From Roseofilum casamattae BLCC-M143 (GTDB lineage: Bacteria; Cyanobacteriota; Cyanobacteriia; Cyanobacteriales; Desertifilaceae): 64,000 nt of DNA. Position 1 is the first letter of the stretch; every line of letters begins with the position of its first letter. The stretch lies in assembly GCF_030068455.1 (NCBI RefSeq), contig NZ_JAQOSQ010000006.1, forward strand, positions 1 through 64,000, read 5' to 3'. This document shows, one piece after another, positions 52,129 to 53,197 of this stretch. The notes below the pieces were generated by a model. It did no database searches. It had not been told where the DNA came from and was given only the letters and a program-made list of their open reading frames with translations. Position numbers and translations under genes: made by a program.

Positions 52129-52752
52129 CTATAATTGACCTAACGCTTGATGGTAAGCGCGAACCATTTGCGGTTCCCGATCCGGATCCATAAACTGAGA
52201 TAAGAGACTAATATCTAAATTTGGTAGCAGTTGGCTGCGTTCGATTTCTCGATATCCGGTAGCGGAATCAATCAATTGATAGAGAGTAAAACCGTCGTTC
52301 TGCCAAAACCAAACTTCTGGAATTTCCAATCCTTGATAGATATCTAGTTTATCAATACCACCACTGGTAATAACGACTTCGATCGCCAGATCGGGAACGT
52401 CTCGCCGTTCTCCGATACAATAACTTTCATCAGCTTCTAAACCTCTGGCCGCCACTTCACTGCGAAACGTAGCAGAACCATAGCTATAAAAATCGAGATC
52501 TTCGACTGAGGCATAAGTTTCCAGCAGTCTCCGAATGAGGCTTTTAATAATTTCATGTTGCGTCGAAGTTCCCATGATTTCTAATAGTCCTTGGTTATAG
52601 CTCAGGCGTAAGCTTGGGGACGGAGAGAGTGTCGTTAGCAGAGTTTCGTACTGTTGCCAAGAAATATTATGCAATGTAATGCGCTGTTCGCTCAGAGTTG
52701 GAGCGACTAATTCTTGTAGCGCGATCGCCGGAATATCAACTGTAACTTTCAT
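52129..52752 (-). CDS. Uma2-family (DUF820) protein with a structured leader
   Basis: 207 residues. The N-terminus MKVTVDIPAIALQELVAPTL is typical of the larger Uma2 subtype; the core has LEIMGTSTQHEIIKSLIRRLL, ARGLEADESYCI, VPDLAIEVVITSGG with the E-x-V/K-like nuclease motif, and LEIPEVWFWQNDGFTLYQL. Function unknown (PD-(D/E)xK fold). A terminator and hairpins lie between 52788 and 52988 on the same strand, 38 bases before the ATG, so its expression may be attenuated. The other Uma2 gene (10146) lacks such a leader. Confidence 0.85.
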   Translation of the reverse strand: MKVTVDIPAIALQELVAPTLSEQRITLHNISWQQYETLLTTLSPSPSLRLSYNQGLLEIMGTSTQHEIIKSLIRRLLETYASVEDLDFYSYGSATFRSEVAARGLEADESYCIGERRDVPDLAIEVVITSGGIDKLDIYQGLEIPEVWFWQNDGFTLYQLIDSATGYREIERSQLLPNLDISLLSQFMDPDREPQMVRAYHQALGQL

Positions 52753-52787: not shown

Positions 52788-52976
52788 CATACAAAAACTC
52801 CCCAGATCTATTGGTTTGGGGAGTTTGCTTTCTTTGTCGCGCGATCGCAATATCTGGCGCGATCGCGCAAAACTTTAAATGCTGTTTCCAACTAATCCGG
52901 TTTAACCCAACCGGTAGGGTGTTCGTCTGAGAGACCAGACGGGACAAGGGTTTCAGGCGGCGATTCCACACACCTC
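52788..52976 (-). ncRNA. Candidate structured RNA or regulatory leader ending in a terminator
   Basis: On the minus strand a TATAAT box (52983-52988) suggests a start near 52976. The predicted RNA then forms GGTGT/ACACC (52970-52974 with 52918-52922) enclosing hairpin CGTCTG..CAGACG (52936-52941 with 52924-52929), then hairpin CCGGTT..AACCGG (52909-52914 with 52897-52902), and ends in a 10-base-pair terminator stem with a U-run near 52795. Length is about 190 nt. It matches no RNA family I can name (not tmRNA, RNase P, SRP, 6S or a known riboswitch by sequence). It could be a stand-alone sRNA or an attenuator for the Uma2 gene. Confidence 0.5.
52795..52826 (-). terminator. Rho-independent terminator upstream of the Uma2 gene
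   Basis: A perfect 10-base-pair stem AAACTCCCCA/TGGGGAGTTT (52795-52804 with 52817-52826) with a 12-base loop. On the minus strand it is followed by a T-run. It ends the candidate RNA and lies 43 bases before the Uma2 ATG. Confidence 0.75.
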
Positions 52977-52982
52977 AACGAG

Positions 52983-52988
52983 ATTATA
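52983..52988 (-). promoter_or_regulatory. -10 box (TATAAT) for the candidate RNA
   Basis: Perfect TATAAT on the minus strand, with the predicted first RNA stem starting about 10 bases downstream. A matching -35 element is not clear. Confidence 0.45.
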
Positions 52989-53197
52989 GGAGTTTCAGCG
53001 ATTCCTCGAGGCGTGCGGGTTGGTATTCCAGATCGTATGCGATCGCCTAAAATCATATCTCTGTCTACCTTCTAACCATTTTCAGTCTGGCTACAATACC
53101 CCAAAAAAACCGGCTCCACACCGAGAGTGCAACTGGAGAAAGATGGAAGAGGAGGATTCCAGGTTATCGCTCCAGAAAGGTCGGCATTCATCGATCG

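What the first reader, a model, noticed from the sequence alone, without database searches (positions are those of the whole stretch)
52788..52988. Possible unknown structured RNA or attenuator in front of a Uma2 gene
A perfect TATAAT, a set of three supported stems (one enclosing another), and a 10-base-pair terminator with U-run line up on the minus strand over ~190 nt, ending 36-43 bases before the Uma2 ATG. The arrangement is that of a terminator-type leader or stand-alone sRNA, and no known family fits by eye.
Basis: seen in the sequence. Interest (0 to 1): 0.65.

Follow-up and report, generated by a model that had tools for sequence, protein, structure and literature searches.

The report
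A CRISPR array with no spacers
The structured stretch in front of the Uma2 gene is most likely not an unknown RNA switch but the remains of a bacterial CRISPR immune memory: a leader, a single repeat and a terminator, with no stored spacer left.

Summary
The features described are real but belong to a known kind. Window 52920-52884 (minus strand) is a 37-nt CRISPR repeat; 43 further matches to its core sit in five arrays elsewhere in this genome. The sequence before it is a CRISPR leader, 84-92% identical, leader and first repeat together, to three of those arrays. Related arrays lie near type III-B genes in G023, G004 and on a Nostoc plasmid; this genome has a III-B effector locus. The window unit is an array without spacers: leader, one repeat, trailer with HIP1 hairpin, terminator. 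Its leader lacks about 81 nt. Of 38 informative leader-repeat places in 291 genomes, only this one and one in G252 have a single repeat; in G252 the following sequence is the trailer of a nine-repeat array, which shows how such units arise. Nothing ties it to Uma2: two Uma2 relatives (80-83% identity) lack it. The repeat hairpin covaries, the leader hairpin does not; the other stems could not be tested. Most likely a contracted, probably inert array; expression is untested.

The parts
52964..53022 (-). Leader-distal segment of the CRISPR leader, ending in GAGGTGTGTGGAA (52976-52964), the short direct repeat at which about 81 nt are missing
   Evidence: BLAST to the far part of leaders of own arrays (C1a, C1b, C6), G004 and G001; 81-column gap in the MAFFT alignment
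52983..52988 (-). TATAAT, in the same register to the repeat as the -10 picked in most other leaders, without a good -35
52921..52976 (-). Repeat-proximal segment of the CRISPR leader, with the non-covarying hairpin 52941-52924
   Evidence: 84-92% identity, leader and first repeat together, with three own-genome arrays; hairpin counts
52884..52920 (-). Single intact CRISPR repeat (37 nt) of a type III-B-linked family, hairpin 52914-52909 / 52902-52897, 3' end GTTGGAAAC
52827..52883 (-). Presumed array trailer, in place of a spacer, with a hairpin made of two HIP1 palindromes
   Evidence: no second repeat; no other match in the genome better than E 0.066 among the candidates scored; HIP1 counts
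52793..52826 (-). Terminator-like hairpin and T run closing the unit, 40 nt before the Uma2 start codon
   Evidence: the scanner lists it on the + strand only
52129..52752 (-). Uma2-family gene, a neighbour and not part of the unit
   Evidence: PF05685, E 1.7e-14

Best explanation
It is a type III-B CRISPR array that has lost all its spacers: leader, one repeat, trailer, terminator. Shown: the repeat and both ends of the leader are homologous to those of multi-spacer arrays in the same genome; about 81 nt, which in own-genome leaders hold a -35/-10 pair, are missing; there is no second repeat. Inferred: the spacers were lost by recombination or slippage between first and last repeat, as the G252 case displays; transcription, if any, starts near 52976 from the TATAAT and stops at the terminator. 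The RNA could be cut once at the repeat hairpin by a Cas6-type enzyme (recalled mechanism) but carries no proper spacer, so it most likely guides nothing and does not regulate Uma2.
For: Own-genome arrays with this repeat: 10, 15, 14, 2 and 2 repeat matches, plus the window's one. Leader homology in two blocks about 81 nt apart in the relatives; in G004 two copies of GAGGTGTGTAGA stand 81 nt apart. III-B genes near such arrays: RT, Cas1, Csx3 and Cas10b in G023; three RAMP matches 5-9 kb after the array and RT, Cas1, Csx3 at the other end of the same contig in G004; Cmr3 and Cas10/Cmr2 annotated within 9 kb on Nostoc plasmid pNPM1. This genome has a III-B effector locus. Of 38 informative leader-repeat places 36 carry more repeats; the other single one, in G252, continues into the trailer of a nine-repeat array of its own genome, 98% over query 12-98 of 150. 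A terminator-like hairpin follows 5 of 9 multi-repeat array ends scored. Other stem variants are array-wide (C6, 14 of 14; G031, 12 of 12 listed), so a stem variant of its own fits a former whole array.
Against: The window's trailer was not found at the end of another array (both score only a capped list of candidates), so contraction here is by analogy. The repeat is intact at its 3' end, whereas several terminal repeats of other arrays are degenerate there. The two differences from the G001 repeat form one compensated base pair, which could mean that the lone copy is still selected. By the crude hexamer score the window's promoter (9) is no weaker than those of 20 of the 39 other rows, so loss of expression is not shown. 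RNAalifold did not return the repeat stem.
Confidence: 0.87

Rival explanations
1. Terminator-type leader (attenuator) or unknown sRNA controlling Uma2: a transcript from TATAAT folds into alternative stems that decide read-through into Uma2.
For: Order TATAAT, stems, terminator, Uma2 on one strand.
Against: Leader and repeat are CRISPR sequence found at arrays elsewhere. The two closest of 21 Uma2 loci (L107, L108) lack the unit; the other 19, at 28-51% identity, were not examined upstream. After SUI1 five same-genus genomes show neither unit nor Uma2 within 1.5 kb, in G003 only 0.35 kb being held. The leader hairpin does not covary.
Confidence: 0.03
2. A crRNA-like regulator as in CreA/CreTA: the repeat plus following sequence guides the Cas complex to a cellular promoter or RNA, perhaps Uma2.
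For: III-B effector present; CreA RNAs come from one or two ectopic repeats (abstract of PMC9458426).
Against: The first 16 nt after the repeat match the window, the III-B stretch L188 and the I-D stretches L128 and L129 no better than shuffles (39, 40, 35 and 32 of 40 shuffles do as well). In the genome the 42 other matches of the 96 nt after the repeat are all E 0.066 or worse and all but two overlap a HIP1 palindrome (capped candidate list). The presumed spacer folds on itself. CreTA repeats are described as degenerate; this one is intact.
Confidence: 0.03
3. A solitary repeat unit acting as RNA anti-CRISPR (Racr), brought by a phage or plasmid and binding Cas proteins as a decoy.
For: Lone intact repeat of a type present in the host, with a terminator; Racrs are lone repeats often just behind a promoter (passages of PMC10651486).
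Against: It carries a leader like those of the genome's arrays; 0 stretches of viral contigs hold the exact repeat pattern; no match in phages; the two plasmid records matched hold 32 and 5 places, the first near cas genes. The window was not scanned for a prophage.
Confidence: 0.05

Closest known systems
Type III-B-linked CRISPR arrays of cyanobacteria (cas-linked in G023 and on Nostoc plasmid pNPM1; this genome's effector genes lie on another contig)
   Same: Same repeat family, leader and strand order
   Different: No spacer and only one repeat; leader about 81 nt shorter
Lone leader-repeat unit in G252 (contig 259)
   Same: Leader, one intact repeat, trailer and terminator-like hairpin
   Different: There the trailer is also found at the end of a nine-repeat array; another family and genus
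Racr / solitary repeat units
   Same: A single CRISPR repeat outside an array, of a type present in the host
   Different: Carries a CRISPR leader; no phage match found
CreTA / CreA mini-CRISPRs
   Same: One repeat may be enough to make a crRNA-like RNA
   Different: No target match found, repeat not degenerate, type III-B where CreTA uses Cascade

Membership tests
CRISPR array (working), type III-B | Repeat belongs to a CRISPR repeat family with true arrays | tested here: met
   44 matches to the repeat core in the own genome, 43 of them in five arrays
CRISPR array (working), type III-B | Leader on the correct side | tested here: met
   84-92% identity with three own arrays through leader and first repeat; about 81 nt missing
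CRISPR array (working), type III-B | At least two repeats around a spacer | tested here: not met
   One repeat only; it is therefore filed as a spacer-less array remnant, not as a working array
CRISPR array (working), type III-B | Link to a III-B effector | tested here: met
   Cas10b, Cmr3, Cmr4, Cmr5, Cmr6 in L188 of the same genome, not adjacent; adjacency in relatives
CRISPR array (working), type III-B | Supporting, not defining: III-B adaptation genes in the genome | tested here: not met
   The single Cas1 match lies in a type I-D locus; assembly 98.2% complete; Cas2 and RT were not searched on their own
Racr (RNA anti-CRISPR) | Solitary repeat encoded by a virus or plasmid | tested here: inconclusive
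   Solitary; no viral or phage match; window not scanned for a prophage
Racr (RNA anti-CRISPR) | Inhibits the host Cas complex | not testable with these tools
   needs expression and interference assays
CreTA / CreA | Pseudo-spacer partly matches a target promoter | tested here: not met
   No match above shuffles in window, L188, L128, L129; none better than E 0.066 among the candidates scored in the genome
Transcription attenuator / cis-regulatory leader | Conserved in front of relatives of the gene | tested here: not met
   Absent upstream of Uma2 in L107 and L108, the two closest of 21 loci
Known Rfam family | Score at or above the gathering score | tested here: not met
   0 matches in the window

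The most novel reading that the evidence does not exclude
The lone leader-repeat-terminator unit is kept by selection: a host-encoded, spacer-free CRISPR RNA that binds Cas6 or the Cmr complex as a decoy or a brake. Not excluded by: the compensated base pair unique to this copy (1 of 44 repeat matches in the genome; the exact 31-nt variant in 1 of 388 genomes), the TATAAT in the usual register, the intact 3' tag and terminator, and a second such unit in G252.
Probability: 0.07. Interest if true: 0.6.

Novelty: new member of a known kind. Interest (0 to 1): 0.2.

Why it matters
It takes a supposed new riboswitch-like element off the list and shows a trap for structure-based RNA discovery: a contracted CRISPR array can look like a promoter, nested stems and a terminator. 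It also gives a view of how arrays shrink to nothing: two leader-plus-one-repeat units in one repeat family, in different families of one order, one of them with the matching trailer still present at a full array.

Tried and rejected
Rfam: no gathering hit; eight weak matches at E up to 10, best E 0.16 (ncr1175), judged chance. RNAalifold on the leader-repeat alignment returned three other pairs without covariation and not the repeat stem; the named repeat stem was counted instead, where five of 35 rows break the fifth pair and one of the three pairs changed on both sides owes that to the window alone. Search for a target of the sequence after the repeat: nothing above chance. Viral contigs and phages: no match. 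Exact stem variant in 388 genomes of the class: only the window. The direct repeat at the leader gap shows as an overlap of BLAST blocks against three of five leaders clearly (13, 15, 11 nt), 3 nt in C6, none in C1a. In one search two array ends (C1a of G000 and G023) were picked wrongly by the loose pattern and are left out of the count of 9. Papers: searches; I saw passages of PMC8616872, PMC10651486, PMC9458426, PMC2886076, PMC8047081 and PMC5513706, none in full. One search (five terms together) found no paper. HIP1, Cas6 cleavage and the 8-nt tag are recalled; no Cas6 was searched for. On checking, I weakened the claim of a lost promoter and moved the confidence from 0.88 to 0.87, the Racr rival from 0.04 to 0.05 and the novel case from 0.06 to 0.07.

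Full report
What is there. The stretch is more stable than its shuffles (z -4.94, 0 of 200). Part of that is trivial: the third stem is two neighbouring GCGATCGC palindromes, of which the window holds 128.

What it is. A BLAST of 53010-52760 against 39 genomes found about 52976-52884 at 84-92% identity in three places of the same genome and all or part of it at 76-88% in G001, G004, G023 and G031. The last 37 bases (52920-52884) recur there many times. Listing the repeats shows ordinary CRISPR arrays with a period near 72 nt. In the own genome 44 matches to the repeat core exist: arrays of 10 and 15 (contig 1), 14 (contig 6), 2 (contig 33) and 2 (contig 15), and the single window copy. The window stretch is thus a CRISPR leader and one repeat, in the order leader, repeat, trailer, terminator.

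Which system. The same repeat family lies among RT, Cas1, Csx3 and Cas10b genes in G023. In G004 three RAMP matches follow the array by 5-9 kb, and RT, Cas1 and Csx3 lie at the other end of the same contig. On the Nostoc plasmid pNPM1 genes annotated as type III-B Cmr3 and Cas10/Cmr2 lie within 9 kb; the second plasmid matched, of Fischerella, shows no cas annotation in the stretch fetched. The window genome has a III-B effector locus on contig 2 with two Cas10b, two Cmr3, Cmr4, Cmr5, Cmr6 and CARF proteins. Its only Cas1 match lies in a type I-D locus with Cas10d and Cas7d and a different repeat. So the effector is present, but no III-B Cas1 was found in an assembly that is 98.2% complete.

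How it got this way. Against intact leaders the window lacks about 81 nt. BLAST gives two blocks; their query ends overlap by 13 nt against own array C1b, 15 nt against G004 and 11 nt against G001, i.e. a short direct repeat at the junction, but by only 3 nt in C6 and not at all in C1a. In G004 both copies stand 81 nt apart. In own arrays C1b and C6 the missing piece holds TTGACG-17-TATACT. In the window a TATAAT lies in the same register, 52 nt before the reference point; in 32 of the 39 other rows the picked -10 lies at 51-56 nt. Its -35 is poor (TCGAGG, spacing 15), yet by that crude score (9) the window is no weaker than 20 of the 39 other rows, so loss of transcription is not shown.

How common it is. 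Among 291 genomes of the order, 17 have a leader-repeat match, 40 places in all. I looked at all 40: 39 and the contig-6 array. One (L163) lies inside an array and one (L171) is cut by a contig end. Of the other 38, 36 have further repeats; the window and G252 contig 259 have none. In G252 the repeat and the sequence after it match at 98% (query 12-98 of 150) the last repeat and trailer of a nine-repeat array in the same genome. That is what loss of all spacers between first and last repeat leaves. For the window no such parental trailer was found (both with capped candidate lists), so its contraction is by analogy. Two further lone repeats lacking most or all of the leader turned up: G001 contig 88, six differences, and G252 contig 249.

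Structure and selection. On 35 distinct leader-repeat sequences (40 places less one array-internal and four identical) the repeat hairpin pairs in 97.6% of cells against 94.5% in shuffles, with three pairs changed on both sides, and 0 of 500 shuffles reach these values. The leader hairpin behaves like its shuffles (64.9% against 64.8%). RNAalifold did not return the repeat stem. The HIP1 hairpin and the terminator have no aligned relatives and were not tested. The window copy is the only row with G-C at the fourth pair and differs from the G001 repeat only at these two partners. By a rough estimate of mine two random changes would do this about 3 times in 1000, so the hairpin was probably selected while they arose. 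Since other stem variants are array-wide (C6, G031), the simplest reading is that they arose when the array was still whole. They may instead show selection on the lone copy; this is the novel case.

Uma2. The neighbour is a Uma2-family gene. Of 21 related loci I examined the upstream sequence of the two closest, Roseofilum acuticapitatum (L107, 83%) and UBA2566 (L108, 80%): neither has the unit, and similarity begins at the gene's start. In five same-genus genomes similarity stops at the end of SUI1, with no unit and no Uma2 in the stretches held (1.5 kb; 0.35 kb in G003). There is no support for attenuation.

Function. The sequence after the repeat gives no target above chance in what was tested. 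Without a spacer and without III-B Cas1 the unit is most likely inert. Spacer loss by recombination between repeats is an established proposal (passages of PMC8047081), and one-repeat CRISPR loci were allowed for in a published survey (passage of PMC2886076). The finding is ordinary in kind.

Noticed in passing
L188 (G000 contig 2, 25000-44900): The own III-B effector locus holds two Cas10b and two Cmr3 genes, beside Csx1-like and CARF proteins.
   Followed up: no
L034 near 1954 and L035 near 8678: Two short own-genome arrays lie in copies of one segment: 588 nt of shared sequence at 78% identity that runs into the arrays, as if array and flank had been duplicated or moved together.
   Followed up: no
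L192 / G252 contig 259, 14062-14211: A second leader-plus-one-repeat unit whose trailer is that of a nine-repeat array in the same genome.
   Followed up: yes
L202 / G252 contig 249, 23592-23689: A single repeat with a related trailer and a strong terminator-like hairpin, not found by the leader pattern.
   Followed up: no
L198, Nostoc plasmid pNPM1 (NZ_CP026682.1): A plasmid typed as conjugative carries III-B genes near arrays with this repeat family.
   Followed up: no
L033 16137-16712 and 16906-17505: Two adjacent reading frames whose first 50 residues are nearly the same, on the same contig as the window.
   Followed up: no
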